Notes under the pieces: model-generated | What the model was told of the DNA's origin: nothing | What the model saw: only the letters and a program-made list of their open reading frames with translations | The model's database searches: none | Translations under genes and position numbers: made by a program | Part shown: positions 37,353 through 60,500 of the stretch, in pieces | Numbering within the stretch: the first letter of the stretch is position 1 | How the letters are laid out: the number at the start of each line of letters is the position of its first letter | NCBI RefSeq assembly: GCF_002078875.1 | Contig: NC_034420.1 | Location: forward strand, 2,975,814-3,039,813 | Length of the DNA: 64,000 bases | Direction of reading: 5' to 3' | Source of the DNA: Numida meleagris | Lineage: Eukaryota > Chordata > Aves > Galliformes > Numididae

Positions 37353-37378
37353 TATATATATACATATATTTTTTTTTT
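37353..37378 (+). repeat. TA repeat joined to poly(T)
   Basis: Alternating TA with one C interruption runs into ten T. This is a composite low-complexity tract likely to vary in length. Confidence 0.88.
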
Positions 37379-38171
37379 CTGCATTTTCCTTTTACAGGCT
37401 GCTACCTAATAACTATTTCCTTAATTAAGAATGGAGAAAACACAGGAATGATGTTGATACTGGAAAGTCATACCGACCTTTTAAAATAGAAGTAAAGTCC
37501 TGCTTCTCCCTTGAAGTGATCTGCTTGTATTAGTACAAAATGCTAAGCTGGTTGGGTAGCATCTGTTGTTAGACTGTATTTAAGCTTATAAACATGTGCA
37601 AATGCTGGTGAGGCAAAGGTGGCTGCCCTAGCAAGGGGCTAACATCATACGCAGCAACCCAACACCTGGGCTCCTGCTGTTAGCTGCACGCTCGTATTCA
37701 CAGATGCGGTTCCTTCTCTCGTCACTGCCCCTCATTACTCAGTCCCTCCTCTCTTACACACTCCCAGGACAGCCCCAAGCAACCCCAGCTGGAGCTTCTT
37801 CCCCTTGGGTTGCCTCCCCAAGCAGCTCGGCTCCAGCACGGCACCCAGGGAGGGAAAACACCTTTTGCAAGGGGCAAAAACCTAATTCCCTCATATTCTT
37901 GTCTTAGCTTCTTCCCAGAGCTCAGAAAGTAAGGACAGCCCATCCTGCCAAGTGAGGCCTGGGGCTGGACTTCAGACTTCTTTTTGGGAGCTTAAACTGA
38001 GCCTTCGGCTCCAAAAGGCTTAATGGCTTGAGCCCAGGCAAAATCTAATCTGCTTATTCCAAAAGATGAAATGAAGAAGCAGAATACAGGACAGGACTTG
38101 TGAAGCTTTCTAGCTACAGATTTTTCTCCCTAGCAATCACTCTTATTCCTACCATGCCTGCTTGAAATTAT

Positions 38172-38200
38172 AAAAGAAAAAAAAAAAAAGAAGAAGAAGG
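38172..38200 (+). repeat. Poly(A) joined to an AAG repeat
   Basis: An A-rich start with 13 consecutive A is followed by three to four AAG units, making a 29-base stretch that is nearly all purine. Confidence 0.88.
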
Positions 38201-41200
38201 AAAACCTACAACCTAGGACAAAGACCCAAAACCTGCCACCTACCCACAAAGGCTGCATTACAAATAGACAGGATCTTTGGATGAATGCAGTAGAGCTTTT
38301 TTCAAGTAATAACTTACTTCTGACTTCACAAACTGCACAAATTCGGTGGGCTCGCTCTGTCACAGCACCGTGCGGTGCAGGGAGCACCCAGCAGCAGCAG
38401 CGAGAAGCTGAGCTCAGACTGGGAAAACCCACAGGGCTTCACCCTGAGCACCTCTGGTGCTGGAGCTAATGACCCATCCAACACATGGCTGTTAGCGAGC
38501 CGGTGTTTGCCTCTCACTTGCCAAAACAGGCTCCCTCCCACTTCACCACAATAAAACAATCCAACCTGCTGCAGTTGACAAGGGAGCTAATATTTACAAT
38601 TAATTACTGAAAATATGTTAAGTTTCGCGGATGATTTCGTGGAAGACAACCACTGCGGACCAAGTTGCAATATAAAACCTGAGACACGATGCACAACGTT
38701 CCTCAGAGAGCTGCTATCTGCAGATATTTAAATCGCTCCGTAAATCATACAGACACTGCACATGCAAATGCTCTTTGAAAACAGCTGATCCAAGGGATTC
38801 CACCTCGCGAGGGAGAAAACAGGCCCATCAGATGGAGCCGTGCTCTCCTCGGCCCACACAGGCTCCACAGCTGTCAGTGCCACGTGTGCTGCTCTGCGTT
38901 CTCCTCTGTGCTCTCCTGCCAGTGCTTCTGCACCATCCCTGAAGAACCGGGCCCAGGGAGGTGCAAACACCCCAGGCCTCGTCACCTGGGAGGACGCTGC
39001 ATTGCTGCAGCCCGAGCAGCTGCCACTCCTTGAAGTAGGTTATTGCCACCAAGGGGAGCGAGAGCCTGTGAATTACTGAATTAACATGCACGTTAATTGT
39101 CTCTCTGCCTGCCTGCAACACCAAGGTGTGCAATTACAGGAGAAATGGAAGTGGGAGGAGACTCACCAGCCCCAAACTTCCCGGCCCGAATCCAGCTCCA
39201 CCGGAGCTGGCATCTTGCTGGGCAATCGCTTTGTGCCTTCCAGCTTCCCTCCTACACCGAGACGGTTCTGCAAAAGGCAGGCTCACGTTTTTCATCTGCT
39301 TGATGAAGTTTAGAAGCCGAGGCTTAGGGAAAACAAGATGCGTGCCAGCACGAGATGCTGGAACGGAGAATCCTACATATGCTCCAACAGGGAAACAAGG
39401 AGATTTTATGGGCAGGATTGTACAAATCTGCGTTTCTATTTTATGGAGGCGTTAAGGTGGCTAATTGGAGCACTGCAGAAATAAAGCTGCCCAGATTATT
39501 TCCAGTGCTCCCCGCCAGCGCCACGGGTCAGCGGGTTTAGCACCCACGGCTGTTCACAGAGATCCCCCTTCTGTAACGGGATGTCAGCAGCAAACTGCCT
39601 AGCACTGAATGTCAGCAGAAGACACCAGCACCAGCAATGTTCCTCACGTCTGCGAGCATTTTCATTCTGTAAGTCTCTTCTCTCCCATTTCAGTCCAATG
39701 AACAGCGCTGTAACTAAGATGGAAGCAGCGAGCCAGTGAAAACTCATCTCTGATTTTGAGACAGCTTATTTACAGGAATCAAAAACCTCCTCTAGAGTTG
39801 TTCCACTAAATTCTCTTTAATTCTGCAAGTATCTCACTTATACTAATGCTTGAGGTTGTCTGCTTCAAAGCTCCATAAGCCTGCAGAGACTCCGAGCATG
39901 TGCATCTCCTGCATGCTCCACGAGTGCGTGTCCCAGAAACGCATAAGCATGAAAGTAAAAAGCAAGCAGCAAGGGAAAAACATTTTGCTGCCTTTTCTGG
40001 AATGCCTACAGTGAAAACAGAGGAGGGAAGGAGACAAATTTGGCAGCTTTTCCACGTGGACGGTGAAATGCAAATCAGCTGGAGACTCTTTTAGTAATAC
40101 CATAAATATTCAGTTAACAAATGTGTTATTCTCTGGGCACCAGACCCAGAGCCCACCGCCCCGTTAACTTGGATGTGAGGCGTACACCCTGCACAGCACC
40201 TCCGCTGCTCCTCGTACCATCTCCCACAGCAGAAAATGGGTTAAAATCCCAAACAAGATTTATTGCAAGACTGGATTCAGAGAATCAGGGGACAGGGAAA
40301 GAGGAGAACAGAAATATGTGCGTTAGTTCTCCCCATTGCTTAGCTTCAGGTAACTTCGCTTTGACTTCGGGTGCGTCGCCCTGGATTGGACGAAAGAGAC
40401 ATTTCAAAATGCAGAGAGATTTCAGAGTACTGTAATTATTAGAGCAGTAACAGCTGAGCTCTGTTGACTCTGCAGAGCATTTTATGGTAAATAACAGCTC
40501 TCAGGAAGGAGATGCTGATCTCCACGCACACGTGCCCAGCCCAGCAGTTTCCCAGCTTCCTCTCTCCATTCCCGCACCAGCCAAAGGATGCGCTCAAATA
40601 TTCCCACTTCTTGATGGCCACAAATGCTCCAGCTGCTGCCCTACCTCTGCTGTCCACAGCTGCTCCTGCTCTCACCGTGTCACTGGAGGAAACACCCCTC
40701 ACTGCAGGAGGGGCATCTTCCCAGCTACCCAGCGCAGAAGTCTCATCCCTCCTTCAGGATGTCCCCCGTATTCCTCCTGACCTGACAGAACAGCACTGGC
40801 CTTACCACATTTGTCTGGTGGAGATGGAGACAGCCAATCTGCGACACTGCAATGTTATTTAACTTACCAGTGATACAGGAGCGACCTGTCCTGACCTCCT
40901 TCAACCACAACAGATAAAACCGCTTCGTTCTCTTCTGTCCACACGTGCAGCAAAAGATTCCTTAAACCCAATGGGTGCACGTGAGATTAGCTCTTCCAAA
41001 CCACTAGAAAGAATCCTATTCCTCGCACTGATATAGGAAACAAACCTTTCCCTGCCCACTTTGGGAAGAGAGCAGGAGCGCTGCTCACCAGAAGCAGCTT
41101 ATCTAGGTAAAGGTGTGCCGAGCAGCTGCTTGCTATCAGCCTTGCCCTTGCCCACTGCCAAGAGCCACGAGGCACTCTGAGCCGGTGCCCCCCCGAGCTG

Positions 41201-44200
41201 AACGCCCCAGCTGCAGGCAGCCCTCGTGCCCCTCTGCTGCCTGGGGTGCCCCACAGTTTGCCTCTGCACCGACAGCCACTGGGGGACAGCCCCCACTGAA
41301 CAAATGGCAGCACCTTAGCTTCAACCTCCCAGCTCCCAAAATCTCATCCCACTGGGGAGCAAGTGCAGTATTTAACAAAATACAGTAAAATCAAACCACA
41401 GGCAAATGACAAGCAATTGAGACAGCAAAGCTGTGCAGACGTAGTAATGACTGCACACAAAAGCACAGCGTGCTGCTGCGGCTGAGCACCACAGCTTGGC
41501 ACCAGCACATCCCCACCCAGCCCAGGCTGAGCTGCCCCTCCTGCAGCAACAGCCCCAGGTCAGCCCTCCTCAGAGGTTTGATCTACAGGGAGACAAAGCT
41601 CTTGGACCAGATTGCTTTACATCCCAGCTAATAGCAGAGAAATGCAGCCGTTAAGTACATGGGCGCAGCTTGGCTGCTCTGCAGAGAAGCACCCCTTCAC
41701 AGAGCCATGGGAAGGTGATGGAGGGCTTGCTGGTCACTTCTTGCTCTTTCAGGAATTCAGCAGAGTTTGAAACGTTCTTGCTGGTGGAAAATACTGCCAG
41801 GTATGCAAATACATTTCATATTTGCTTATGTTTTAGATACCTTTGCTCATACAATTCAAAAAACACAGGGCTCGACCACAAACTGTGCTGAGCATTTTAT
41901 GGCACCGGTCTGCAAGCAGGAGCGTGTTCCTCAGAAATGAGGGATGCTGATATCAAAGCCAGGATGCCGAGCTGCACCTGCGCCTCTCGGCTCTGCCAGG
42001 GCGATGGGCTTGGCCACGGCCCCAGCACTGCTGGAGCCCAAGCAGTGGGGTGGAAGGTGCAGCTGAGGCTTGGAGAGGTTGGAGTGATCAAAACTGGCAG
42101 CAGCACGGGGTGGAACAGGGCAGGAGCTGTGGACTTCATGCCCCTACAGCACCCAGTCATCACCTGTCCAGTTTGGAGCAGGATGGATGTGTTTAGGAGC
42201 CTTGGTCTTAGCAGCTAATTCCTCAACAATAATTTCCCCGTGCAATAACTCTCAAGGGACTCTCTGTCTGAGTAAAAACAATGCAGAGATGTGACGAAGT
42301 TTGTTCCAAGTCTGAGCATTTCCAGACAAAGCATTTCTGTGACCATTTCAGAAGGCACGCTGCATCTCTCCTCCATGCTGCCCCCCAGCCAGCAGCCTGG
42401 GAGAGAGCACTGCTCCCCCTGTCCCACACCATGTCATCTTCTCAACCATGTTCCATACGCTACCCCCATCAGCAGTCAGGTCAGAGGGAGGAGACAAGGT
42501 AGCATTAGCTAAAAAAATGCAAACGAAGCCATGTCAAGTGCTACAGCTGATGGCATCGCCCAGAAAACAACTGATCAGACACTGCTTGTTTTCTTGCTTG
42601 TCTGTGGTGAGCCACGTGCGGCCCAGAGCTCCATCACAGAGGTGACTGCAGGGCAGCAGCTCAGCTGCAGTTTCTCCCTCCAGCTAGCAGACTCCAAACG
42701 GCTCAGCATCCCACTGGGACAGCTCCTTTTTGATGTCCTGAAGCCATGGAAAGGAAAAGGCGCCTGAAGAAGGAGCAGTCTCAGGCTGGCTTTACATCCC
42801 AGCATGTAACATGCTCGCTGACGCCATGGGGAGGAAGGGGCCACACAGGCTCAGGACTGCAGACCCCACTTCTGCCCGTCCTCCTGCACAGATCAGCGTG
42901 CACCCGGGTGAGATTTCCCCCCTGCTCTGATGCAGCCATTTGTCTGGGTGCCTGCAGTCTGGTTAGCTCTGCATGCGCAGCACTGCAAATCAGACCCTCT
43001 GTCAGCTCACGTGTTAGAATACCAGACGAGAACAAGCGCTGTGTCACAGAGGCTCAGGCCCACACAGGGTGGTGTTCCACTCCCCGGGGCACTGCTACGC
43101 AGCCCAGGGTCACGCCTGACTATGGCCACTTGCCAATTTGCAGCCCAAAGAACAAACTTTGGGAGGAGAGAGTTTTCCTGGAGCAAGAGAAATGCAAACA
43201 CTGGCACGTGCAGAGCGGTGGGTGTTGAATATGTCAAGAAAGCACTGTTTGGATTGAGGAACTGCACTGAGCCTTTCTGCATTACTGTTCCTTTATGTCC
43301 CCTGTGCAGTGATTTTTAGTAAGAAAGACAGCACACACCATAAGCACCCAGGGCTTTCCCCAGCGTGACGGAGGAAGCACCACTACAACCCAGACACATG
43401 CCAGTAAAGTGCCCTGCCAGTCCTGAAATCGTGGTCAATAAAACACTGACACTCAAAAACAAATTCACTTCATTTTGGGAAAAAAAAAATATTGTAAACC
43501 TTCAGAGTTTGTAATAAAGCTTAAATAAGTATGAAAAGAAATATTTAAAAATGTGGTGACGTTAGCCACTGTGAAGCTGGGGCTTGGCCAAAACCTGTGC
43601 TAAATTAAACATGAAGTTCAAAGCTTTTCACATCACGGAGTCACATGTTTTAACTGAGAAAAATCCAAGTGCATGGCAGTGCTCATTGCAGCCACCAGAC
43701 AGGTACCCCGTAACTCACACTGGAACTGCTGATAAGGACAGAGCTTGGACGATTACCGAGGCTGGATGTTACAGGTTGGCAAATACTTCCTTTTTTACCC
43801 TTCTGGATTATGGTAAAACAAAAACTTCAAAGCATTGTAGCTTCATGGCTGTGTGTGCACCGCCAGAGCCACACGGAGCCGTGCCAGCGGCAGGGAACAC
43901 GCACACACCCTGGATGCTAATGCGCTGTAATATGCAGCGTGCTACGGGATGGACTTTCCCCCATCCGTTTTACTTTCTGGGTCTGACTACAGCAGTTCAG
44001 GCAGGAGCTGTACGTGCGTGGGAAGCAATCAGGGACGCGCACGGCTTCTTTTAATTTAATCAGTGCTATCTGCTCTTAAGACCAGCTATTTGAGATCACC
44101 TTCCCTCACTGGCAGGAGCTGAATTTATGGGGAAGCAAGAGCAAGGGGAGGTATTTAGAGCAAGCCGCCACACTGGAGCTAAATACGCTTGGGCTGAACC

Positions 44201-47200
44201 ATGGGGAGCAGGGACAAGAAGTAGCTGTAGGTCTGCAAGCCCCTTCCTATGTCTGCAGCTCCTAGCACCCAAGAAAACACCCCGGTCATGCTTGCTCTGA
44301 CACTGTGCAGACGTGCAGAAGTGGGGTGCAAGCAGTTCCTGTGCCCCCATGCCACCTAACAGGCATCCCAGGGACACTGGGTGACAGCAGCACCAAGGGC
44401 CTCCCATGCACTCTTTGCACCAGGGAGACACCACAACGTTTCACACAGATAAAGCAGCACATACTGATGAGCACGTATCGGTCAGCAGGATTTTTCCATA
44501 TCACTTCTGAGTGATGACATCAAACAGCTTTGTTACCAAGTGCTGCTTTAGACACCCATTACAAAGGTACTTCCCTGGAAAAAGCTGTTGCTGTGAAATC
44601 TTCTGTTTTCAGTGCAAACAGCTGACCAGGTACTGGACCCGCAGAACAGGCTGCAGCAGGTGACAATCAGAAAAGACTAGGGAGAGAGAATGCCATATCA
44701 ATGCAGATTATTGGCTTGCGGAGAGCCAAGAGAAGTGAAACCAGCCAATTCCATGGCCTCCAGCACCTGCAGCACAGGGCTGTGGAGCAGAGCAGGAGGG
44801 ATGCTGCCCTACTCCAGGAAGTGAATGGGTGGGAAACCGAAAGCATTCTCTGTGAATGAAGTAGCCAGGACACAGCTGTACGGTCTTTAGGACATGCACG
44901 CTCACCTCCAGAAGCAGTAGGCTGACAAGTTTCTCAGAGGAGCAGAAGCAGGAGATGGGCAATTTATTTTGTAAAGGTACCTAGCAGGCAAAGTGAACAC
45001 CAGGGCAGTTCCCCTGCCCAAATCTATCACCTCCGCACTACAGGTGCAGCGCTGAACAAGACTGGCTCCCTGCAACACCTCTGAGTGCCCCTGAGCAAAA
45101 GAACAGGTTGTTCTAATGCTGGCACTAATGCACTGATCCAAGACAGTGTCACCACTGCCTTATTCAGATTGACCCATCAAATATCACATAACGGTTTTCT
45201 GGTAAGTCATGCACTTGAAAATATGGCTGGTGAGACTCAGAATCCGATGCTTTTGGACAATGAGCCATTTCATAGCAAACTTTACTTCAAAACTAATTAC
45301 TGACATTTCAAGCCAAGTGAATTCATAGTTAGCTCTTGCAAAATTAAACAACTATTTTGGGGCCCTCTTGATAGTTTGGGTTTGAGTGACACTGGATCAA
45401 AATACAGTTACTTGCACTCAGCAAACTCTGATTCCCAGCCTAGAGCTGTACTTTCTACTGGTGTATCCAGAGTAAGAGCTGGGCTTGCATCTTCAAGGCC
45501 AACAAGACAGAGGTAATGGAAATATCTGAGCTATATTTCACTTTCACTGGGGGTGGGAGAGAGAAAAGAAAGAACAAACACAGCTGATGCCTTATTCCTC
45601 GACCTTTCTCATCTACTGGAATTGAATTTGCCCACAGAAGGAAGTGTAAATATCCCCACTGCACAGGGGGACTACAGAACGCAGCCAGAACAAGAAATCC
45701 ACCCTGTTGAACAGATCTGCTAATCCGAACGTTTCCATGACAAATACGGACATGGCTGATTCTAGCCACAAATTTGGTCCTGATTGGCTGCAGACGGTAA
45801 AAACACATGAGAAATCTCTACTTCAGCAGTGCGTTAAAAACAGAGATGCATTTGTGCTGTGCATTATCTGCTGTGCTGGCCCTCCGCCTCTTAGTGTTGG
45901 TTTTGTTGTTTTTTTTTTTCCCTTAACTCATTTACCATTTTATTGCTCGTGTTTGCTGGAGGATATACAAGCAACTTGAAATTCTCAAAGTCCATCTTCG
46001 TCTTGTATCTAGTGCTAACCGCTAACGTGCTAAGAGAGGGCCGGGAGCTCCTCTCGGCTTCACAGGTGCTGGGTGCACTGAGCTCCCAGCGGTTCCTACC
46101 ATCCCCGGTGTCTCCAGACCCTTTTTTCTGTGGGCTGGAAAGGTGACAGCAGTGCCCCAGCGCTGAGGACACGTCGGTGGCTCGGGCCCCACAGGCTCCC
46201 TAGGATGGCTGCGAAGCTTTGCTGATGTAAGGTCAGGAGTGACCAGGTGCTACCTCTCGTTAGGCCAACTCATGAAGCTGAAGAAGGCAGGCAAGAGGAA
46301 TCCCGACCGGGAATGAAAATAAAATGCCATCAATTCAGGTGATCAGAGGAAAGAACTTGTAATGAAGCGTACAAACAACCTGTGGAACTACCCAGCGCCA
46401 CTGCAGAAGCCAACAGCTCGTCTCATTGACTAACTGCAGCTGTCCCAGACACCAGGGAAAGCTTCTGCAGCTTTGCTGCTAGGAACACAAATCTAGGAAA
46501 CAGAAACCGTTATCCCCAAGGAGAGGCCGCGTGGCCCACAGCCTGCCTAGACAAAACACCCAGTTACACTGCACTGGGTTCTCACGCTCAAGCCAAAAGT
46601 GTGATCTCCTCTACAAACAGCACTGCTCACCCCCAGAGAAAAGGTCCCGCACCTGACGGACCACTGCTCTCAACTTTAAGGCAGCTTCCAGCTCCACGTG
46701 AGGAGCGAGGGACAGAAATACAAGCCATGTCTTCTGCACCACGCCACGAAGGGCTCAGCACTGAGCTCCTCAGCCCGGGCTGTCAGCACCCACCTCCTCA
46801 CTTATGGATAGCAAACTCCTGGCTTCAGATACCACCTGCTTCTTTTACCTGTTCTTAAAATAAGATACTTGTGTAAGTTTTGCTATTAGTTTATTACACC
46901 AAAGCAGCTTAAGATCTGTGTGTAAGCTGCTTGGCAAGACAAAGCTGCACAAATTGTCTTCCATCTCCTCGGAAGAGCACACAGTTAGCAAGATTATAGC
47001 ATATTCGCAGAGGCGTGGAGCTAGTCCCACTACAACTATTTCTTCAAGCTCTTGTTTTGGCAGTAGTACTTAGCTTCTATATTAATCCTGAAATACCCAA
47101 ATAAACACACAAAACTACCAAAAACCAAACAGGAGATGAAAATCTAGTAACGAAACAGATCACAAGCACTTCGCTCAGTAAAAGACAATGCTGCCAAACA

Positions 47201-49180
47201 GAGCAGCTAACCCGCGTGCCCCACAGCCCAGAAGGCAGAGCCAGCACGGGCTGCAGCAGCAAACGCACACCTTGTCCTCTGTGAGCGTGTGAGAGCTCAG
47301 CCAGACTGCAAAGACGAGGTGGGATCCTTGGAGAACTGCTCGAGGAACAGTGCAACTGGCTGAAGTCAGCCAAACCAACAGCAGTGGTCCACAGTGCTCC
47401 TTCCTGCCAGGTGAACAGCGAGCTAAAGGTGTGACATCCCTCACTGGCTTTGGAAATATCCAAGAAAATCAAAGGGATTTCTTCCAATCTACTCCCTCCA
47501 ACCGAGTATCCTACTAATTGACAGCAACACTTGGATAACACATCGGAGCCAAGAGGAGATAACTCTGGGAACACGAGGTTTGATAAATGTAGCTGAACAA
47601 CCAAAGCCAGCAGCAGGCATCAGCAAGATTGAATCCCAGCATACACGGCAAAATGTGTGACCAGACGCTGCATTTTTACTGCCCGTGAATTCCAGCAACA
47701 GCAATTTCTTCCATCCATTAGGGAACTGAGCCAATCGGAAGACAGCAGTGTAGTGGAGAACAGATACATCCAGCCAAAAATGATCTACATGCAATGGAAA
47801 TTGGACGCAGCCTTCAGACTTCAAACAGGAGAATGGGATCCTGCCTGCTGCCACCACAGCCAACGTGTCCCCACAGCGGGCTCAGCCACTTGGCAGTGCC
47901 CAGCACCATTCCGCTCCATGTGAGACTCAGGGTCTCAATGGCCAGACAGTTTTGCCTGTACCATAAAGAATATCAAACATCTCAGATAATGATACAGTTA
48001 TGGTTGTATTACGAATAACATAAAAAGATAAACTGCAAACCACGCATACACACGCGCTAATGTAAAATTTTACCCTACCAGGTCAACAACTTGTCTTGGA
48101 CCAGGAACGCAACATTTTACACTTGCTCACAAACTTGCACAATTAAATACCTTGCACAGTCCTTCCCATTTTTCTCCTTATAGCAAGTACTTGAAGTTTC
48201 ACATTTCCAAATACGCTATTTTTTTTCCTTGGAATTGCTAGAAAATCCATACCAACTTTCACTTCAAGAGCATACATACGAGTGAGCAATAGATCCAGTG
48301 GAAATAGAGACCTACCCTAGAAATACTGATAGACTGCTAAATGCAGACGTTCTGGCAGGGAATAATATTTCCAAACAGCAGACAGACTTGCCAAAGTTTC
48401 GAGGTCTTTCTTTTTGGTGCTCTCTAAGCAATACTCATTCTGTATCGTACAGTGCTTTCAACTTTCTGCTCAGCAGCACTATGGAATTTTTGAATTAACC
48501 CTGAAAGAAACTGAGCAGAGCTCAGGCAAATACTATACAAACCAGATCTCCTGAAAAAATCAGCGTTTTGCAGCCAGTATTTATGGATTTAAGGATTTTA
48601 ATCCCTGGGATCGCTGCTCGCTTTCTCTATAATTTTTTCCATGAGCTTCTCCTCCTCTCCTTCCATATAAAAATATCCGAATATTTTTCCTCTTGGTAAT
48701 CTTCATAAAACACACATCATTAGCACTGCACGCTTGGTGTTGGATTACTGAAATACAACATTACCTCTACCAATACTTTCTGAGAAAGAAACCACAAGGT
48801 ATTGGGAAGAATTTGCTGTGCATCTGCATTTTATTCCCTCCTCAGTGGATTTACAAAGCATGGGATTTGGGAATAAACAGGTCCCTTCTGCAAGAGCTCT
48901 GCATACGGAGCCACTGAGTTTCTCCTCCTCGTCCACGCCTGTACGAAGGATTACAAGATTTCAGATGGTTTTCTCCTCCAAAGCCCCTCCACAGCAATTT
49001 CCTGGTGCCCACACGTTTCCTCCACCACCTCACAACCCACTCTCCTCTCCTCTGCAAATTACAACTCACATAAACACTGCTGGCTTACTTACAAGTGGCA
49101 CATGTTCATTTTCTCCTCCCTTCCCAATACTAATTTTTATCCCAGCAAATACACAGAAGGGGCAGGAAAAGCGAAGCGGG

Positions 49181-49190
49181 TCTTACCTTT
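49181..49190 (-). other. KCNIP1: Splice donor of KCNIP1 exon 1
   Basis: On the minus strand the exon ends AAAAG and the intron starts GTAAGA, with the GT at 49186-49185. Seven or more positions agree with the consensus donor. The site leaves one base of a codon in the exon (phase 1), as expected for the junction before Asp in KChIP1. Confidence 0.93.
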
Positions 49191-49247
49191 TGATGGTCTT
49201 CTTTGTTTCGTTTGTAGAGAGGAGAACGTGCCCATTACAGCACCCAT
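49187..49247 (-). CDS. KCNIP1: KCNIP1 (KChIP1) first coding exon, MGAVMG isoform, 20 codons plus 1 base
   Basis: Read on the minus strand from 49247, the exon gives MGAVMGTFSSLQTKQRRPSK and ends with one base (G) of the next codon before a splice donor. I recognise this as the N-terminus of Kv channel-interacting protein 1. KChIP1 is an EF-hand calcium sensor of the neuronal calcium sensor family that binds the cytoplasmic N-terminus of Kv4 channels and promotes their surface traffic and gating. Gly2 lies in the known N-myristoylation signal that targets this isoform to membranes. The start is supported by a G at -3 and G at +4, and by an in-frame TAA twelve codons upstream (49281-49283). The phase-1 end fits the Asp that follows Lys20 in KChIP1. 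The EF-hand domains are encoded by later exons not seen here, so only about a tenth of the protein lies in the window. Recognition is from memory of the family, but a 20-residue match with a correct splice site leaves little doubt. Confidence 0.95.
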
Positions 49248-49392
49248 TGCAAACGCTACTCGGGAGTTTTTGTGGAGGATTTATTTTGGCTGGGCTTTTT
49301 TTTTTTGATTCTTCTCACTCCCCTCCCTCCCACCGCCGGTGCACAAAATCTACATGAAATGCCCACGAGAACCAAACAAAACAGAGGAAGTC

Positions 49393-49429
49393 GAGGGAAG
49401 AAAGAAAAGAAGAAAGGAGGAGGGAAAAG
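49393..49429 (+). repeat. Homopurine tract, 37 bases, in the KCNIP1 5' region
   Basis: Thirty-seven consecutive A/G bases lie about 145 bases upstream of the KCNIP1 ATG. On the KCNIP1 strand it is a CT tract. Such tracts are common in vertebrate promoters and can adopt triplex forms. Some parts are mirror-like (gaagaaagaaaagaagaaag). Confidence 0.9.
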
Positions 49430-49475
49430 CGAAGCACTGCAGCTCAGCGTTCAGCAAGCGTTAAGCTTGGAGGGC

Positions 49476-49490
49476 TTTTTTTTTTTTTTT
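49476..49490 (+). repeat. Poly(T) tract, 15 bases
   Basis: An uninterrupted T run between the CpG island and the KCNIP1 coding exon. It would be A15 in a KCNIP1 transcript that starts upstream of it. Confidence 0.92.
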
Positions 49491-49507
49491 AGTCAACACA
49501 CATGCAC

Positions 49508-49514
49508 TGACTCA
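49508..49514. promoter_or_regulatory. AP-1 consensus site (TGACTCA) near the KCNIP1 start
   Basis: An exact TGACTCA heptamer, the Fos/Jun binding consensus, lies about 260 bases upstream of the KCNIP1 ATG, between the CpG island and the coding exon. A 7-base match occurs often by chance, so function is only suggested by its position. Confidence 0.25.
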
Positions 49515-49619
49515 CAGCCGGCTGCACCGTTATTATTCAGAACAGCTCCCCATCAAAATTTAAATGCTAGGTAGATTCCCTTAGACCAGAGCTGGCAGCG
49601 GATGCATCAAAATATTTAC

Positions 49620-49906
49620 TGGAGCGCAGCCACACAAACACACAGGGTAATTCTTCCTCCCGCTCCCTGATGGCTCCAACCAGCAGCCTGGAGGTCTACG
49701 GGGAGAGCAGCAGCGCATCCCTCCCAGTGAATGCTAAGCTGGCGTCCCGGAGGCGCGGTGAGGGGCGGGGGGGTGCCAGGGCTGCGGGCTCCGCACCAAT
49801 CCGGAATGAATGGGAACCTTCCGAGCGGGAAGCGGGAGCGTGTGAGCCGGCAAAGCCCCAGCTGCCGGGACTGCGTGCCCCTGCTAACGAGGAGCCTGAC
49901 AGAAAG
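49620..49906. promoter_or_regulatory. CpG island, likely KCNIP1 promoter
   Basis: The segment is much richer in G+C than its surroundings and holds about sixteen CpG dinucleotides between 49740 and 49890, against very few in the neighbouring kilobases. It has an Sp1-type GC box (GGGGCGGGG, 49762-49770) and a CCAAT box on the plus strand (49796-49800). It begins about 370 bases upstream of the KCNIP1 ATG, the usual place for a CpG-island promoter of a brain-expressed vertebrate gene. Promoter function is inferred from composition and position. The plus-strand CCAAT and a donor-like AAAG|GTAGGA at 49903-49912 leave divergent transcription possible. Confidence 0.6.
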
Positions 49907-50671
49907 GTAGGAAACAGCAACCTCTAACATTCATCTCGAGCACAAAAGTCAGGCGGAAGATAAAGCGTAACGGGAAAAAGGGGTAAAAAACGTCACTACC
50001 ATCCTGCCTCCTTGCATGCTTGCTCACACAGCAGAGGCATTTGCAAGACTGTTATCAATAACTTATTTTTCTGTGAAGTACATACACGTCCTTTCTGGAG
50101 ACATGAAAGCAGCAAACTGATGAACAAAGCCCTGCAAACGTTTGGTGGCTCAAAGCATGTTGCACAACTCTCTGTTTTCGTCAGTTAATATTTCAAAATA
50201 CCCACGGCGCATCTTGTTATTTCTTCTCAGCAGGTGGAAAGGACAAGTGCTCAGGTACAGAAGGAGTTAAAGTCAGGAAGGCAGAATTAATTTGCTGTTT
50301 GCTCACGGGGACTTCAATTAAGGCAGCATCTGCGCAAACACTGCTTTTATCTGAAGAAACTCATTCCCACACTGGAGACCAAAGCACCACAACAGGTTTC
50401 ATCAGCTTTCCTCTAACTTTGGAGAACAATTTCACCAAACCCATCTCCAGAGCCCCAGAAATCCGAAGCCACAAAGCGCTGCTCTCCCGCAGCGAAGCCC
50501 TGTGTCTTCCCCTGCTCGCAGCCGGCCAGCAGAGCAGCACCGGCATGCGGAGGTGCCTTTGCATCCCCTGTGCATACCAGCAAACAGGGCTCAACCAGCT
50601 TCTACTTGCAACAGGCTGTGGTGTAATGTGGAATGCATTTTTCTTTTTCCATTTTATAACTCAAAATACAG

Positions 50672-50700
50672 GGTTTTTTGTTGTTGTTGTTGTTTGTTTT
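50672..50700 (+). repeat. GTT trinucleotide microsatellite
   Basis: Six T are followed by about five GTT units and a T-rich end. On the KCNIP1 strand it is a CAA/AAC repeat, probably variable in length. Confidence 0.9.
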
Positions 50701-53601
50701 CAGGAATACTGTAGTAACACAATGTTTTAATGCTGCTGAACTCGCACGCAGCAGCTTGCAGGTGGGTGTGAGGCTCCTGGCAGGTGGGGCACTGCCCTGT
50801 GTCCCCCCCCCTGCTCCCCAGGCTCCAGGTAAGGGCTTTCCCCAGCCTCAGGCTGCGGTCATCTCCAGAAGGCTCTGAAGAATTCTGAGATTAAGCTCCT
50901 TTTCATCCAAACATCTATAGCATCTATTTGATTAATATTTTATTTGTACCCACAATATCAAAACATGAGACAGGTTACAGCATGCACGTGGAAAACCACC
51001 ACTCTTGGGCTTTCTGCCTGCAAGAAAGGCCAGAGGAGGACCAGAGGCTTTGGGAGATGCATCCTCACATGGCAGCAGCTCCTCGGCACCAGGTGTCTGG
51101 CTCAGCCACCTCCATGCCAAACAGGAGCAAAGAGGGGCTCCTGCAGTGCAGGTGGGTCCATGCCCCCTGTGCTACTTTTGGGCACATATGTGACTGCCAG
51201 CGTGGGAGATATATAGGAAAAAGGAATACAGGAAGACAAAACTGCACTCCTGATGCTGCACTACTGTTTACTTGAAGCAGCACGGTATATGGAGTCAGAG
51301 GGCATGCGTGGATATTTGGTTTTCTTTGAGACTGGAAACAAAAAACGGTTTGTCCTGGCTAGGAGCCAGCACTGGCAGATCCCTGTGAAATCATGGGAAT
51401 CGCTCACTGCGTGCATTTCTCTTGGTATGACTAAAATATGCAAAACAGGAACGAGAGGAAGAGCTGTATCTGAGTCTGGGCGAAGAGAGCGGAGTCCCAG
51501 ACCACGAGTTCACCACCAGATGCTTTCTCTCACAGCCAAAAACCAGAGGAACAGAAGAGTTGTAAACAATAATGAATCAGTGTAAGTGACACCACATGCA
51601 GGAATTTCCTTTCCCTGAAGATGACCATCCAGGTTTATCAGGCTAAGAGGTAACACTTGCTTGGGATGCAAGAGATGCTGATGGTCACCTCTACACGAGG
51701 ACCTAAAATCTTTCCAAGTATTTCTGCTAGAATTGAGAAGGCTTCTGACCTGAGCTCAGTCCTGGACTCTGACATCCCCAGACCTGGCTGCACGGGCTGT
51801 GCATTCGCCTTCTGGGTAAGAGCTGCCATGGTAGGATGAAAAGAGCCTTGGGGACAGGAGGGAAGGGGTACACCAGCCTGGGCACAGCCATTTGGATGCA
51901 GTGCTCTGACTCGGTGACTGCTGTCACCACCATACCAGCATGCTCGAGATGGGAGCTTTCCCTGGGGTAGCAGGTATGTGCTGTGAGGTGAGGACATGGC
52001 CCTGCACACACGGCTCCCATCCACGTACCCAGCGTGTACCCTGCTGGGTACATCCCCAGCCAGCAGAAGCCTGGGTTCTAATCTGTCACCCCATATCTGT
52101 GAGATGCATGTGCCCCATGGGCTCCTGCTAATTATCACTGCTGTCTGCTAGCAATTAAACCCCATTCCGCTACTTTACCATTACAACACACCATATAGCA
52201 GAGAGTGGTTTTGTTTGGCATGCAGCAATGTGGATCCTCGCCAACAGGAAGCAACCTCCCAGAGCACTGTACCGAGTGCCTGTGAGTTATCAGCCATCTT
52301 CTCTTTGTAAAGCAAAGCTACAGCGCCCACGTTTAGGACTAGCAAGGAAAAGTCCCAAAAGCACCCAGATTTTGTAAGGTATGGCACTAGTGAAATTCAT
52401 TCTGATGTTCTTCTTTTGTTTGGTCTCCCAAAGTACAGCATGGAGCATTTGTCTAATAGTAACACAAAATCAAAACGCGATTGTTCATGGCAAGCCCTTG
52501 TCCTTCATTCTGCAGCTCTCAGCTTGGAGTGCTCCCAAGTAGGTTCTCCTTCAAAAAGGCTCAATTAACTTTACCAATTCTTTCTCTCTCCTGGCTATTC
52601 TGAGACCCAAGCAGCACTGACCAGTGTTTCTTCCAATTAAAAATTCAGGAATTTCATTTTCCGTATTCCCACAAATAAAATTTGCTTCAGGGACACAATT
52701 TACACCTAACCAACACCGACAGCTTGACTCAAAGCAGAGGGGATTTTCCCTCAGCTCCTGCTTTTCTTTAGCCTGTCTGTAAACCAAGTCCTCTAGCAAA
52801 AAATGGGGAACGTATGAACAGCAGCCAGGGAGCTGGGCTCCAGCACAGAAATGCCAAGACCCCACTTTCATGCTGTGGTCAGATGGCTGCAGTTCAGACC
52901 CCTGAGAATAGCCCAGGCCCCGCTCAGCACTCCTCCAGCTGCAGCGATGAGCCGGGCCCCATCACGGACCCTATGGCCGTGCCCACAGATCCCTCCCCAA
53001 GGCAGATGCTGGGGAAGCACAGCAGTTGCCCTGCAGACACAGCCGTACACCACGGGCACTGCCCACAGGCCCATGCCCTCTCTTCCAGCTCTGATTTTTA
53101 AAACACAACATGCAGAGAACTGGCTAGCTAGGAGAAAAAAAAAATAATCCAAAGCAAGAGGAAAAATGTTCCTTTTCTACGAGAATGAAATGAGAGTTTC
53201 TGTTGCTTAGCAAATTTTTAACCAGTTGCTGTCCTCAGCTGTCAGTGCCAGAACACCCCAGCCCCTGGCAAGAGCTCCTCAGGAATGATTCCTTGATAGG
53301 ACCGCTCAGGTTTCAACTATACTAGCCCATACATATAAGGTGTGTTTGCTTATGAGGAATACGCATCATTAATTCCCTGAAATTGGCCCAGCTTGAAGCA
53401 GAAATACAGATTGCTAAGGAAAGTCCTCCCACCGAGCAAACAAAGCCATCTTACAGACCTACGGGGATAAATGGGAGCAGCATGGGATGATCTGCTGTGC
53501 CACAGGGAAACCAGCTGGGCGACAGGGACCATGCTGAGGCTGGTTTTGCTGTTCTATACCTGTAAAAATTGTCTGGGGATCGTTAGGGCCCATCACTTGC
53601 C

Positions 53602-53820
53602 TTTTTTTTTTTTTTTTTTTTTTTAAACAAAGTTCCTCTTATAAAAGGGACAGTTCCTTTAATGAACATATTCAACGTGAAAGGCTTTTTTTTTTTTTTT
53701 TTTTTGTCATTGTAAGAACACAGCAAGTCTTGCTACTTTGGATTTTCACAAGAATTCACCACTCCTGTGGGTTTGGCTTTGTTTCTCTGTTTTTTTTTCC
53801 CCATATTTTTTTTTTTTTTT
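53602..53820 (+). repeat. Cluster of long poly(T) tracts
   Basis: Within 220 bases there are T23 (53602-53624), T20 (53686-53705), T9 (53790-53798) and T15 (53806-53820). No retroposon body was recognised on either strand, so independent slippage growth in a T-rich region is the simplest reading. Confidence 0.9.
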
Positions 53821-56024
53821 AATTTTTCTTCCAAAACAGCAGAACCTAATTCTGCACCCTCTTCTTCTCCACTCACGAGCCATTACAATACACCAGGATG
53901 TTTTCAAAGAGACCTTTCTACCCCGGGTAAGGACAAGGCAGAGCAGATCTATTAAAAGATTCATTGCTGCACCTCTATGGGCCTAAAGCAAATTCTCATG
54001 CTAGTTAGTTTTGCCAGATCCCGAAAGGCAGAGGTCCTCCCTTTCATTTTGCAGGAAATATATTTTTCATTACATGAAAGCCAGTGAATAATAATGCTGA
54101 GAAATCGGACGGAATACATGAGACTTGAAGCTTTGGGATCATCTAGATAGTCATGCAAATACAGCACCGGCAGCATTAACTGAAATATTAGGAAGCCGCT
54201 TGCTTTCCAGCCTAGAGCATATAGAGCTATGCAAAATCAAACCAAATATAAAGGCCAGTGTCACTCCGTGCCACCAAGCAGGGAACGAGAAACCAGGTGC
54301 TGGGGTCTGAGCAACGAGGGGTGCTCTCCTGAGGAGAGCAGTGCAGGGCTGGCACTTGGCACCCCAGCGCGGAGCAGCAGCCCCTCCTGAAACACAGGGC
54401 CAGGCGTCGCTGCGCGGCTCCGGCCGTCCTTCCTGGAGAGAGAGTGCCCACACACAGACATCTGTGCACTCCAAGAAAAAGCAAAAGGAAGATGGAGGTC
54501 TTGTTCTGCCTATATGAGTCAGCGCAGAGAGAGCTGGAAATAAAACTGCATTACTGTCTGCTGGTTCATCTTTGGTTTAGTAATAAAACTGAGCAGGACT
54601 CCACAGAGCAGACCTAGCGCTTGCCCTAAGGACATCACACTTGAAAACATATAGCTGAGCGCTCAGGAAGGGAATACTTCACATTTCTAGTGACAACTTC
54701 AACAAAACATGAGGCAAACACTGCTTTATGTCGTCGGCTGGATTATTTCTTCTATAAACAGAGAGAGAACATTTGCAGAAAAGTATCAAAAAAGCAGGAG
54801 ACGAGAGCCAGGGGCTGGGAGGGGAGAGCCAGGCAGGGCCCCAGCAGCAGGAGATGGAGCTGGGCACTGTGCAGGCAGCAGCCAGGAGCCCGTTGCTGGG
54901 GAGTGTCATAAAAGAAGCTGCGTGGGGGGAGGAGGCCTGGGGTCAGTCCCGAAACAGGGCTGTGGAGCAGGAGTGCTCAAATGGAGAGTGCAGCCGAGCC
55001 AGGGCTGCAGGCAGACGAGCACGAAGACGAGCTCCAACCTTTGTTTCTCAAGATGCTATTACGGCAAAGCCCGGGGATGAATAAGATCATGTTTCAGTAA
55101 TGAAAATCATGTATTATCCCATGAAATGTGTTTGAACGTTGTGCCAAGTGCAGTCTTGCCTTTCAAAATTATAAAATTCATACAGGAGAAACTGCACAGT
55201 GCTCTGAAGCTGGAGACCCCGAGGGATGGGTACAGAGTAGTGACACCACATAGACTCTGGGTACCAGGACAGCACCGCGCCATGCCAGCAGGAGCTCCTG
55301 CCCTTTGAAAAGCAGTATGTGAACATAAATGCAATGCATTAAAGCATCTCCTACACAGGGAATGAGGGGACAGCTTTTTAAGGGAATTTTGGCAGTCAGC
55401 ATAGCAGAAAGTGCCGCAGAGCCGTGCCCCAGCTTCCCTCCCTGCAGATGACCAAGCTGCGCCCTGCCACGTTCCACCAGTCCGACCAGAACAGCCCAGT
55501 GCAGGGGACCACAGTAACCGTGTTGGCAGCTCTGGCAGCGGTGAGGGCAGCAATCACCACATGCTCTGCTGCTAGGAACTGCAAGGAGCGGCCAACGCCG
55601 GGTACCAGGCGCACGCGCAGAACCCAAATTCAGTAAACAATCCTTATATCTCAACCTATACGCATTTCTTTTGCATCAGCAGCCTCTGTGAATAGTACAG
55701 AGGGCGTGCAGAGCTAAACTAACAAGCTCACAGCGACACACAATGTGACCAGGCAGAAAAAGACCCCGGGGAAACGTGTCCTAGCTGTGCACACGATGCC
55801 AAGGACACCTCTGCCAGCAGCTGGGACCGCCAGCACCAGCATGGGGCACGTGTGTGCTCGCTGCTCACACCTGGCTGAGGTTCAGAGTAAGTGAGCTGAG
55901 GGACAGAGCTCCGTGGGGTTCTGTTGTGTCAGAACGGTATAAAGAATGTGAACAAGAAATGTCAATCCGAGCTAACAACCGGTTGCAATTCTTTCTCACG
56001 ATAATGGTCAAAGGGGTCTTACTG

Positions 56025-56047
56025 AAAAAAAAAAAAAAAAAAAAAAA
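56025..56047 (+). repeat. Poly(A) tract, 23 bases
   Basis: An uninterrupted run of 23 A. No target-site duplication or retroposed gene was recognised beside it. Confidence 0.92.
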
Positions 56048-57451
56048 GCCATTTGTAATTACTTTGTATTTCCACAGACGACCGATAAACTGACTCCAAG
56101 CATTCCTACAGTCACTGAGTTCAACATCGCGGAGGAAAAGAGAGAAGAGCAGACGTTCAGATGATCTTGGGTCTCTCCTTTCGTTTTGCTTTAGTGCACT
56201 TTGAAGAAATGTGCCAAACTAACCACATATAATTCAGGTCATTGAGCAGATGCACACACACTGTAACTAACGGGGATATTTAACCGGCTATTTTTGGTTC
56301 GCATTTCACTTCCCACCATAGGGTCTTGTAAAAGAGAGCAAGAGCAGCCATTACACACCTCTAGGTAAGCTCAGCTTCTGTCAAGTCAAATCACATCAGT
56401 GCAAAGCAGGCTAAATAAGACAGTGCTCTGTCTGTACATTTGAGCTGCTGCTTTCTGGATGTGCGAGGGCGCTCCTGGTGGGGTCCTGCTGGGATCCGCT
56501 CTCCAAGTCACAGCTTTTGTTTTCCAATCATTAACAGCAACACACTTTAACTGAGATGACATACAGCATTCATTGTATCATTTCATAACTTTAGAAGCAT
56601 GACTTTCTTAATGAAGATTCATAAGTTTCATGTTCTACGCTGCGATCTCCTCTGCCAGAAAAAAAAATACGATGGGAATATTCCACTACAGCTTGCTGTT
56701 TGCAGCCACTACAAATAATCCATTAAAATGGAGATTAGTTTGGCAAGTTTCATTAAGATGAGCATCAACACCTCCCAGACTCATAACATCCTGTGCACCG
56801 AGCAGACAGCTCTCTGACTGTTAATTTCCCATCCTGTGAATGCGCACCTTCTGATGCTCCACCTCGACAGACTGCTTGCAGGAAAACAATTGTTTTCAAT
56901 ACAAAGATCCCCTCGGCACATCAGCCCAGCCTAGCATATTGCCTGGGAATACTTTAATTCACTGCTAGCATGTACTGAACTACACCAGTTCTGCGCGAGA
57001 TGGAGCAGACCCTGCTGTGCACCGGGCATGAACAGGCTTTGAAGACAGGATTTGGTGTCTGCCCCAAACAGGTAACTAAAGGCAGATTATGACCCATTCC
57101 CTGCTGCTGCAGCAGCAGCCCCTAACACAAGCTGGCTTAGGAACCAATTTCAAATGTGAGCAGGGCAGTGGTTTACCAGTATCTGTGCAAGCAATCATGG
57201 GGAATCACATCGTCCCTATGGAAACCTCAAGGTCTGTGACATGCACGGTGATTACTGCCAGTGGTTAATACACTGAAATCATTCACAACATTAAAATGAA
57301 GACTGAGTTGCATCAGAAGCCAAATTTACAGGTAAATGTAAATAAAGCAGGATTAGTGGTGACTAAGCAGTGTAATGGTGGGATCTTCAGATGGAAACCA
57401 CCATGGGACCCACAGACAAAATAGGCTTTGCTCTACAGAGACTTTCACAGC

Positions 57452-57471
57452 AAAAAAAAAAAAAAAAAAAA
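57452..57471 (+). repeat. Poly(A) tract, 20 bases, followed by GAAA units
   Basis: Twenty A are followed by gaaagaaat. No retroposon body was recognised. Confidence 0.92.
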
Positions 57472-59519
57472 GAAAGAAATGATTATTTCAGGTAGCTCCC
57501 AAGCAGCTGAAATCACTGATATTTTTCCCTTCCAACAAATGTTTTTGGGATTGATCTTGAAATCATGATGGAAGCCAAGCCCTGTGCCTGCAGCCCAGCA
57601 GCAGCACTCCCAGCACACCCCGAGGATGCTACTGGATGCCCAGCTCAGCAAGCAGAGCAGAGGAGCAGCAGGCCTTCCAGCCAAGGAGAAGCACTGTTTG
57701 GGGAACAGCAGCTAGTTCTCATGTAAATTCAGGTGCAGTACTACATGGCACAGCTGCGTAGAACTACAAAGAGAAGATGTGAGAACCAGGTAAGGCACAA
57801 ACGACTGTGACAAGTTTGGAGGTGAGTGCATTCTGCAGAGTTATCACTGGGCTGGGGCAGTAACCGCAGTGCCCTGGTGATGTGCTGCTCCCTGCACTCC
57901 CGATGTGTATTTCCATCTATAACTCCACCGTAACTTTGTTTAAGCAAGAGAATTCACATTAAGGTTACAGCGGATGAAGAATGCTTCCAATAAAGGGATG
58001 CATGTGCTCCTGTAGTGCTGACTGCTGGTCTGAGTTATTATCATTACAACTTGAAGGCTGAAGCGCTCCCCAAATCACATCATCAGTGATAGCTACCATC
58101 AAATTCTGTCCAGTACAGCAGCCGAGATATTGTCTGGTCTCATTCACTAATTACCCATATTCCATTTCAAGAGGTACCAATGCAGGGCGGGCACAGCACC
58201 GAGTCCCACTGCTGGCAGCAGGCTGCTGCATGCAATAACCCCAACCAAAGCAAACAGACCCCACATTTGAACGTAGATGTTCGGTCAGAGGGCTTTTCTT
58301 TTTCATTTTCCCGGGTGAGGGTATTTTGGAACTACTGGCCTGCACATCCACCAAGAGCAGGCACTGATCTTCAAGCAAGCCAGGTATCTGCCACAGCAAA
58401 TACATTACTGGCCATTGTCTGACCTGCTTCACGTTCTTGCAAATAAGCGGGTGATTTATTTCTGCACTAGACAGTGAAAAAGTGATTAGCTTTTGCTTTT
58501 TCAGTAAAATCTCTGCTGCTAATCCATGAGGAGTGGGAATGTCTATCAGTGCAGAGCAGCTGTGGGTACCTGCGGATGCTCCTGGTGGAAGAAAAGGCAT
58601 ACAAGCCTGTGCCGTAATGTGAGGGGTACCTTAAAAAGTGGAGACCTGTGGCACTGGCAACTTTCTGCTGAAGCTGATGAACAACTTCTCATCAGGTGCA
58701 GATCTTTAATTTCCAGGCAGAGCTCGGTTTTCTTTCCAGGTCCTCTCAACAGAAGACTTATTGCTTGTTTCACATTCAATTCTTGCCAAGAGGATGACAG
58801 CAAAAAAAAAATAAAAAATTATCAAACCTATAGGAAACAGATCTTCAGCAATCCTCCTTCGTAAGCTATGAAAATTGTCATCAAGATTTCATCAATCTAA
58901 GATAAAAAGCCTGGGCAGAAAGCAGCCACCAGAAATGGAAAACCTGCAGTGTGTGCCCAGGTCCACGGGGTGTGAGGGCAGCTCAGACCCCCAGCCCCAC
59001 TGCCTCATCGAGGTGCCCCTGCACAGCCCCCACATGTGCTGGGCTGTAAATGCCAGACACCATCAGCTGTAATGCAATATGCAAACCCTACCTGGCAAAC
59101 ACAGCACAGCGATACAGAGGACACCATTCTCCCACTGACTTTCAGGCTACAGGGCCATTTTAAATATATAGTATCTTCTCTCTTTGATGAGTCTAGATTT
59201 ATTTGGAAGTCTCATACTTGCCTGCCCTTCTGTGCAAAAAGATTTTAAAAAACCTTCTGAATTCACCCAACAGCACACAGAAATAAAGGGGATTATAGTT
59301 CTCCTGCTCCTGATGTTAGTGGAGTCCCTGGCCTCATTGCTTTAAGATACAGCAGCAAAAATCAAGCCAGTCTTTGTTCCTGCTCTGGATATCGGAGCAC
59401 TCCAGGAACACAAATCTGAGGCTCACCAAAGCACTGACAATAAAACACCCATGGGGATGCACTGACCTCTCCTGTCCTTCTAACGTGGGGCTGACACTTT
59501 CAACAAAGAAATACATGGC

Positions 59520-59563
59520 AAGAAAAGGAGGGGAAAAAAAGAAAGAAAAGAAAAAGGAGAAGA
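59520..59563 (+). repeat. Homopurine tract, 44 bases
   Basis: Forty-four consecutive A/G bases with GAAA-type subrepeats. This is the longest pure purine run noticed in the window and a candidate for triplex structure. Confidence 0.9.
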
Positions 59564-60109
59564 TCCCCTGCACACCAGGACTGGCCATTTTCTATCAGAA
59601 GGGATTTTGGAGAAAGTCACAATGACAATTCCATAAACCACTGAAATCTGAACAAGTGTCAAGCATATTCTCCGACTTTTCTTTTTCACCCTAAACACAT
59701 CTGTGGGCAACAAAACCAGCTCCTAGCTCTCCTAGTTTCTGAACCATCATTCTTTAACCACCGAGCTGCTTCCACCTGCTTTCTCCTGAGAACAGCAGGA
59801 TCTCATGTCCTGTCCCCTCTGGTGTCACCTTCTGCTGCAGCTCAGCGCTGGCACCGCTGTGCTCCCCCCCAAGGTGCCGATCTAAAATCCTTCCCCTCTG
59901 CATGGAATTCGGTGTCCGCCGAAACAAATCTCTGCGGTGTTAACTCTCCCAAACCCTTCTCGGGCTACAAACTCCATGGCAGACAGGCACAGAGGAGGCA
60001 CCTGAAATGAGGCGCTGGGGCCTGGAGCACAGGACCACGTCAGGGCTCAGCTGAATTTGAGACAAGAGCCAAGTCCACAGGGGCTGTCCTACTCATCTCT
60101 GGTTTGCAA

Positions 60110-60500
60110 GGCAGCTCAATGGGATGGGCGTTATAAAGCTCCAACATGACGCATTTTATAGCAGAAGGAAACAAAAGCGCGTAATGAAAAGCATTCCTCA
60201 TCATTTTATTTCTTTTCATGCCGGCAAATATGCAAACCTTTCCAGCTGCAAATCCCTGCTAGTTACAGAAGTGAAGCACCATAAATCTAAAATGCTGGGA
60301 CTCGCATTCTGCTTGTTATAAAGCTGTTCAGAAGCCATTTCTGCATTGTTTCTTGATTAGAAGTATTTGTGAAAATTATTTTTCATACATTCCTGTCACA
60401 GGCAAAATAGCTGTGCCTAGCATTTAAATTACAGCGTTCAGCAACTTTGCTTATGTTAATTAATACTAAACATATGAACAAGATGTGGATTAGCATAATG
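60110..60500. promoter_or_regulatory. Candidate conserved non-coding element upstream of KCNIP1
   Basis: This AT-rich block contains aaatatgcaaac (octamer-like, about 60225), three ttataaag or ttttatag motifs, and tgttaattaatac (about 60453). No repeat was recognised. It lies about 11 kb upstream of the exon 1 ATG, so it could be a distal regulatory element. The evidence is composition only. Confidence 0.22.

What the first reader, a model, noticed from the sequence alone, without database searches (positions are those of the whole stretch)
49187..49247. A 61-bp KCNIP1 coding exon is the only recognised coding sequence in 64 kb
The exon encodes the full MGAVMG N-terminus of KChIP1 with a consensus donor in the right phase and an upstream in-frame stop. 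It is far too short for ordinary open-frame detection and lies inside a longer meaningless frame on the opposite strand (48818-49357). It fixes the gene, strand and identity of the whole window.
Basis: partly seen in the sequence, partly recalled or inferred. Interest (0 to 1): 0.75.

Follow-up and report, generated by a model that had tools for sequence, protein, structure and literature searches.

The report
First exon of guineafowl KCNIP1
The 61 bases are the protein-coding part of one of several alternative first exons of a well-known bird potassium-channel helper gene (KCNIP1), giving the start of the KChIP1 protein that carries a fatty-acid anchor in mammals; it is real, conserved and ordinary.

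Summary
Minus-strand 49247-49187 encodes MGAVMGTFSSLQTKQRRPSK, identical to KChIP1 N-termini in the PDB. It has a phase-1 GTAAGA donor, an in-frame upstream TAA and one match in the 1.04-Gb host genome. KCNIP1 exons 2-8 lie on the same contig and strand; joined across a 186,494-bp intron they give a 216-aa KChIP1a frame ending in a stop. The window's strongest CpG cluster lies just upstream, as expected for a promoter.

Two corrections. The 61 bp are only the coding part; a 5' UTR must precede them. And the gene starts further up: another first exon (MSGCSK type) lies 129 kb upstream, with a BK-beta gene (probably KCNMB1) on the other strand between. A KChIP1b-type mini-exon lies 179 kb downstream.

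Verdict: known gene biology, low interest. A side observation outside the window is more interesting: the KCNIP1 locus also holds two transmembrane-type first exons absent from the tmKChIP lists in the papers I could search.

The parts
49187..49247 (-). Coding part (61 nt, phase 1) of the KCNIP1 first exon encoding MGAVMGTFSSLQTKQRRPSK plus the first base of codon 21
   Evidence: Translation; identical to PDB 7f3f, 1s1e, 7w6n N-termini; in-frame join to exon 2
49181..49186 (-). 5' splice donor GTAAGA
   Evidence: Read directly; joins in phase to exon 2 at C17:2838505 and to the mini-exon at C17:2846070
49245..49250 (-). Start codon context GCAATG (followed by G), G at -3 and +4
   Evidence: Read directly; that this is a favourable Kozak context is recalled
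49281..49283 (-). In-frame TAA stop, 11 codons between it and the ATG
49501..50000 (.). CpG maximum of the window (28 CpG in 500 bp, o/e 0.69, GC 0.57), just 5' of the exon: probable promoter region (inferred)
   Evidence: The nine top-ranked of 1271 sliding 500-bp windows start between 49351 and 49751 (the ninth ties at 24 CpG with one at 18951 and ranks by o/e); 1 kb upstream has 42 CpG against 17 in the 1 kb downstream
1..49186 (-). Start of KCNIP1 intron 1 (49,186 of 186,494 bp to exon 2)
   Evidence: Exon 2 at C17:2838381-2838505
49248..64000 (-). 5' UTR and promoter flank of this exon, and intron of the distal MSGCSK-type KCNIP1 isoform whose first exon is at C17:3154229-3154316 (inferred)
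   Evidence: no transcript seen

Best explanation
This is the coding part of the alternative first exon of KCNIP1 in Numida meleagris that makes the N-myristoylated KChIP1a/1b proteins. Transcription starts on the minus strand in the CpG-rich stretch just upstream (inferred). The ATG at 49247 opens a 20-residue N-terminus whose Gly2 is the myristoylation site in mammalian KChIP1. The GTAAGA donor splices in phase 1 either across 186 kb to exon 2 (KChIP1a, shown to be an open 216-aa frame) or to a 33-nt mini-exon 179 kb away that adds 11 residues, DPARWFYVYQR (KChIP1b; frame shown, use inferred from the chicken protein). The EF-hand core from exons 2-8 binds the Kv4 channel; the lipid-anchored N-terminus directs KChIP1 to post-ER vesicles and is thought to help Kv4 traffic (literature on mammals; inferred here).
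For: Identity of all 20 residues to PDB KChIP1. Exons 2-8 in order on C17 minus strand with AG/GT borders and matching phases; 648-nt frame then TAA. The spliced protein hits KChIP1 chains best: E 4.3e-141 for 1s1e, against 4.7e-110 for KChIP4 and 8.4e-105 for KChIP2; 206 of 216 residues identical to 1s1e. EF-hand Pfam families. The identical 20-mer is in 41 of 120 listed database proteins, among them chicken P0027, where it is followed by DPARWFYVYQRDKIEDEL. The mini-exon in this genome gives the same peptide. CpG peak just upstream. Myristoylation of Gly2 in KChIP1a/1b: passages of PMC3973911; an N-terminal myristoylation motif in KChIP1: passages of PMC10377897.
Against: No RNA evidence from this species. 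P0048, the only Numida-named row among the 120 listed, starts in another exon (C17:2897849-2898115), though clustering at 90% identity may hide other Numida isoforms. 60 of the 120 listed proteins have neither an MGAVMG nor an MSGCS N-terminus. Two passerine models, P0059 and P0061, read the exon in a different frame.
Confidence: 0.97

Rival explanations
1. The exon is a relic: present and conserved, but no longer used as a first exon in this species, which starts KCNIP1 from other exons.
For: The listed Numida protein P0048 starts in a different exon.
Against: Intact ATG, frame, donor and phase, with 20 of 20 residues unchanged; CpG peak just upstream; chicken has a database protein starting in it (P0027).
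Confidence: 0.02
2. The exon is read mainly in another frame as part of a longer N-terminus, as in the zebra finch X1 and Prinia X2 models.
For: P0061 and P0059 align to minus-strand 49408-49186 in other frames (46-70% identity).
Against: Those models need an extra linking segment before KIEDELE. In the guineafowl the frame that ends at 49186 opens after a stop at 49317 and holds no ATG before the donor. The MGAVMG frame is identical in PDB KChIP1 chains and in 41 of 120 proteins.
Confidence: 0.01
3. Chance resemblance or a retro-/pseudogene fragment.
For: None beyond the small size.
Against: Score 99 against 25-29 in 5 shuffles; one genomic match; real intron boundary and downstream exons on the same strand.
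Confidence: 0.001

Closest known systems
KChIP1a (Kv channel-interacting protein 1 isoform 2; PDB 7f3f, 1s1e)
   Same: Same 20-residue N-terminus, same junction to DKIEDELEM; 206 of 216 residues identical to 1s1e
   Different: Ten core substitutions against 1s1e; avian; 186-kb first intron
KChIP1b (11-residue insert form; PDB 7w6n, 7w6t)
   Same: Same N-terminus with an optional 11-residue aromatic insert between exon 1 and the core; a matching mini-exon is present in this genome
   Different: Insert reads DPARWFYVYQR here and in chicken, DIAWWYYQYQR in 7w6n
KCNIP1 distal first exon (MSGCSK type; assignment as a KCNIP1 isoform first recalled, then seen in listed KCNIP1 proteins such as P0030)
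   Same: Same gene, phase-1 donor, same core
   Different: Lies 129 kb further upstream, beyond the BK-beta gene; a different kind of N-terminus (palmitoylation type, recalled)

Membership tests
KCNIP1 / KChIP1a | N-terminus MGAVMGTFSSLQTKQRRPSK | tested here: met
   20 of 20 identical
KCNIP1 / KChIP1a | Gly at position 2 (myristoylation site in KChIP1a/1b) | tested here: met
   Residue present; role from passages of PMC3973911. The modification itself is not testable here
KCNIP1 / KChIP1a | Phase-1 splice to a seven-exon EF-hand core, giving DKIEDELEM after K20 | tested here: met
   Exons 2-8 with AG/GT borders, 648-nt frame then TAA; EF-hand Pfam hits. This bird reads DKIEDELEMTT where 1s1e reads DKIEDELEMTM
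KCNIP1 rather than KCNIP2-4 | Core closer to KChIP1 than to paralogues | tested here: met
   PDB E 4.3e-141 for KChIP1, 4.7e-110 for KChIP4, 8.4e-105 for KChIP2; other matching loci on C5, C8, C26 and further contigs
KCNIP1 locus | KCNMB1 within an intron of a longer KCNIP1 transcript, as in human | tested here: met
   Three CaKB (PF03185) pieces at C17:3124381-3126632(+), the first with one TAG inside the match, between the two first exons. That this CaKB gene is KCNMB1 rests on its position; it was not compared with KCNMB2/4. Human overlap from a passage of PMC4048279; the human strand is recalled
KChIP1b | 33-nt aromatic mini-exon compatible in phase | tested here: met
   C17:2846038-2846070(-), TTTTTCCTAG|...|GTAAAA. 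Patterns from the mammalian sequence missed it: no match, none on C17, none on C17 among its listed places (only the first of 643)
KCNIP1 expressed first exon | Transcript from this species starting in the exon | not testable with these tools
   No RNA data held

The most novel reading that the evidence does not exclude
The exon in the window is one element of an ordered array of interchangeable phase-1 first exons in vertebrate KCNIP1. That array also holds two transmembrane-type first exons (MNLEGLEM and GESEGLQT types, C17:2919360-2919458 and 2866964-2867071), in the same order as similar exons at the related KCNIP loci on C5 and C8. KCNIP1 would therefore make tmKChIP1 isoforms that oppose the myristoylated ones, although the tmKChIP passages I read list only KChIP2x, 3x, 4a and 4e.
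Probability: 0.5. Interest if true: 0.4.

Novelty: already known. Interest (0 to 1): 0.12.

Why it matters
It settles the identity of the window: KCNIP1 intron and promoter-proximal sequence of the helmeted guineafowl. It also shows that a 61-nt exon can be recognised from sequence alone. It adds no new biology by itself. The locus map is useful because it places this exon among alternative first exons with different membrane anchors (lipid or transmembrane), a point of regulation of Kv4 A-type currents.

Tried and rejected
Mini-exon with the mammalian sequence: one search gave 0 matches and one search gave 5, none on C17. One search gave 643 matches, close to its reversed-pattern control of 516, and listed only the first places. 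The exon was found only after the chicken peptide was used. A scan of the window for mini-exon-like AG...GT stretches gave nothing convincing (305 candidates, best score 20).

KCNMB1 inside intron 1 downstream of this exon (my first expectation): rejected, the CaKB gene on C17 lies 99 kb upstream.

RNA genes: 0 tRNA or tmRNA (bacterial-code ARAGORN) and 0 Rfam matches at gathering score. Tandem repeats: 3 short ones.

The KChIP1 sequence that I recalled gave 205 of 216. The chain 1s1e has V where I recalled T at position 177; against 1s1e the count is 206 of 216.

No vertebrate DNA other than this genome was used, so nucleotide-level constraint (dN/dS, UTR conservation) was not tested.

Full report
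What was claimed.

The observation. Translation gives MGAVMGTFSSLQTKQRRPSK. The exon ends CATCAAAAG|GTAAGA. The coding part is 61 nt long, so the donor is in phase 1. The start context is GCAATGG, and an in-frame TAA lies at 49283-49281 with 11 codons between it and the ATG. The antisense ORF 48818-49357 (+, 179 aa) is there. A PDB search returns three sequences, all KChIP1, identical over all 20 residues (E about 1e-7). The best six-frame 20-residue score in the window is 99, the self-score; the next is 29, and the best in each of 5 shuffles is 25-29.

Where the window lies. The assembly G000 has 1.04 Gb, and the window is C17:2975814-3039813. C17 is 17,892,257 bases long, exactly the contig length listed for the NCBI protein 'Kv channel-interacting protein 1 isoform X1 [Numida meleagris]' (P0048). 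The first 89 residues of P0048 match C17:2897849-2898115(-) at 100%. I conclude that the species is the helmeted guineafowl (taxonomy). A 201-base query around the exon has one match in the genome.

The rest of the gene. A KChIP1 query finds seven further segments on C17 minus strand between 2838509 and 2825659, and matches on C5, C8, C26 and other contigs (47 matches in all, E up to 10; the two highest-scoring single matches, 47% and 45% identical, are uninterrupted segments on C3 and C2). The internal exon borders carry AG and GT. Exon 1 joins exon 2 (C17:2838381-2838505) across 186,494 bp, completing the codon of D21. The eight coding pieces give 648 nt with no stop, followed by TAA. The 216-aa product matches KChIP1 chains best (1s1e, E 4.3e-141, 206 of 216 identical), ahead of KChIP4 (4.7e-110) and KChIP2 (8.4e-105). 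It has EF-hand Pfam domains. A database search found 1835 relatives and listed 120. Of these 120, 41 contain the identical 20-mer; by N-terminal type, 39 start with MGAVMGT[F/L]SS, 11 have MGAVMG internally, 10 carry MSGCS and 60 are other.

Alternative ends. A distal first exon encoding MSGCSKRCKHGIVKFAQTIFRLITGTLSK lies at C17:3154229-3154316(-), 129 kb upstream, also phase 1. A BK-beta (CaKB) gene lies on the plus strand at C17:3124381-3126632, between the two. By position it is KCNMB1; it was not compared with its paralogues. A passage of PMC4048279 says that human SNPs lie in intron 1 of an alternate KCNIP1 transcript and in intron 1 of the smaller overlapping gene KCNMB1. Chicken protein P0027 has DPARWFYVYQR between exon 1 and the core. 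In the guineafowl this is a 33-nt exon at C17:2846038-2846070(-) with good borders, and in-silico splicing gives ...RRPSKDPARWFYVYQRDKIEDEL. I read it as the bird form of the KChIP1b aromatic insert (an 11-residue insert rich in aromatic side chains, passages of PMC12823592). So the window exon is one alternative first exon with at least two possible downstream partners.

Promoter. In 1271 sliding 500-bp windows the nine top-ranked by CpG count start between 49351 and 49751, just 5' of the exon (28 CpG at the peak; the ninth, with 24, ties in count with one at 18951 and ranks by o/e). The 1 kb upstream has 42 CpG, the 1 kb downstream 17. The distal MSGCSK exon has 82 upstream, while the first exon of P0048 has 9 and the GESEGLQT-type exon 13. 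This is inferred promoter evidence, not a transcript.

How it works. From passages of PMC3973911: KChIP genes have a common 3' core preceded by alternative promoters and optional exons; Gly2 of KChIP1a/1b is myristoylated, KChIP1 then localises to post-ER vesicles, and this is hypothesised to help Kv4 traffic. That the guineafowl protein does the same is inferred from identity.

Is it the only coding sequence? The KCNIP1 and CaKB matches other than the exon itself lie outside the window. A local tblastn of 70 KCNIP1 N-termini gave extra window hits for P0046 (E 3e-6 and 0.001, in repeat sequence) and for P0081, P0083, P0089 and P0105 (E 0.012-0.033), which I take as chance. Pfam on 115 frames (the exon's own frame and 114 of the 150 longest; 485 frames are 60 aa or more) gave a single weak match (HJURP_C, E 0.0015; which frame was not shown). 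Shorter frames were not scanned, so the statement is supported but not proven.

Against. No RNA from this species. The listed Numida protein starts elsewhere. Zebra finch X1 (P0061) and Prinia X2 (P0059) read the exon DNA in other frames. In the guineafowl the frame ending at 49186 opens after a stop at 49317 and has no ATG before the donor, so I judge these passerine models artefacts or lineage-specific (inference).

Side observation. The KCNIP1 locus also holds two hydrophobic, phase-1 first exons: MNLEGLEMIVVLVIIVGFVKALEHLGLLEGNYE at C17:2919360-2919458 and MWTEGESEGLQTLGIVVVVCSSLKLLHYLGLIDLSD at C17:2866964-2867071. Similar exons occur in the same order at the C5 KCNIP locus (MSGC at 81174951, MNLEG at 81281332, ESEG at 81378154, core from 81430250) and at the C8 locus (MNLEG, ESEG, core, on the minus strand; no MSGC match there). 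Not all of these are clean: my script found no donor within 60 bases for the C8 ESEG match, and neither the C5 nor the C8 ESEG match includes an ATG. Among the 120 listed proteins, 8 have the ESEG type by my reading, among them chimpanzee, lizard, frog and shark, and 2 the MNLEG type (P0085, P0121). Passages of PMC3973911 and PMC7269670 list the transmembrane KChIPs as 2x, 3x, 4a and 4e. A search for 'KChIP1x' found 0 papers, and 'tmKChIP' with 'KChIP1' found those same two. The 2008 paper on transmembrane KChIPs (PMC2602920) is not held, so this is not proof of absence from print.

Verdict. Real, correctly read, ordinary: a known exon of a known gene.

Noticed in passing
C17:2919360-2919458 (L058) and C17:2866964-2867071 (L055), outside the window: Two transmembrane-type KCNIP1 first exons, both phase 1, with similar exons in the same order at the C5 and C8 KCNIP loci; the tmKChIP passages I read do not list a KChIP1 member.
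   Followed up: partly
C17:2846038-2846070 (L049), outside the window: KChIP1b-type 33-nt mini-exon gives DPARWFYVYQR in guineafowl and chicken, against DIAWWYYQYQR in the mammal protein P0023; turtle (P0065) and snake (P0002) forms differ again. An arginine replaces one of the aromatic residues.
   Followed up: partly
C17:2897849-2898115 (L052), outside the window: First exon of the NCBI Numida KCNIP1 isoform X1 (MVIAIT...), in a CpG-poor setting (9 CpG in 1 kb upstream); its conservation was not examined.
   Followed up: partly
window 49186-49408, minus strand: Zebra finch (P0061) and Prinia (P0059) KCNIP1 models read the 5' UTR and exon 1 in other frames, then use a linking segment ending ...FQSVWQVL(L/P)ED before the core.
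   Followed up: partly
window 8892-9120, 4982-5248, 23335-23508, 23999-24134, 25899-25965: Interspersed repeats matching other held loci of the genome; the stretch 8880-9040 has 40 scored matches, its own place included, out of 2956 candidates. Probably CR1 LINE fragments (label recalled). A piece of a cormorant KCNIP1 model (P0046) aligns to two of them.
   Followed up: partly
window 18951-19450 and 55351-56050: Secondary CpG-rich stretches (up to 24 and 22 CpG per 500 bp) with no gene assigned.
   Followed up: no
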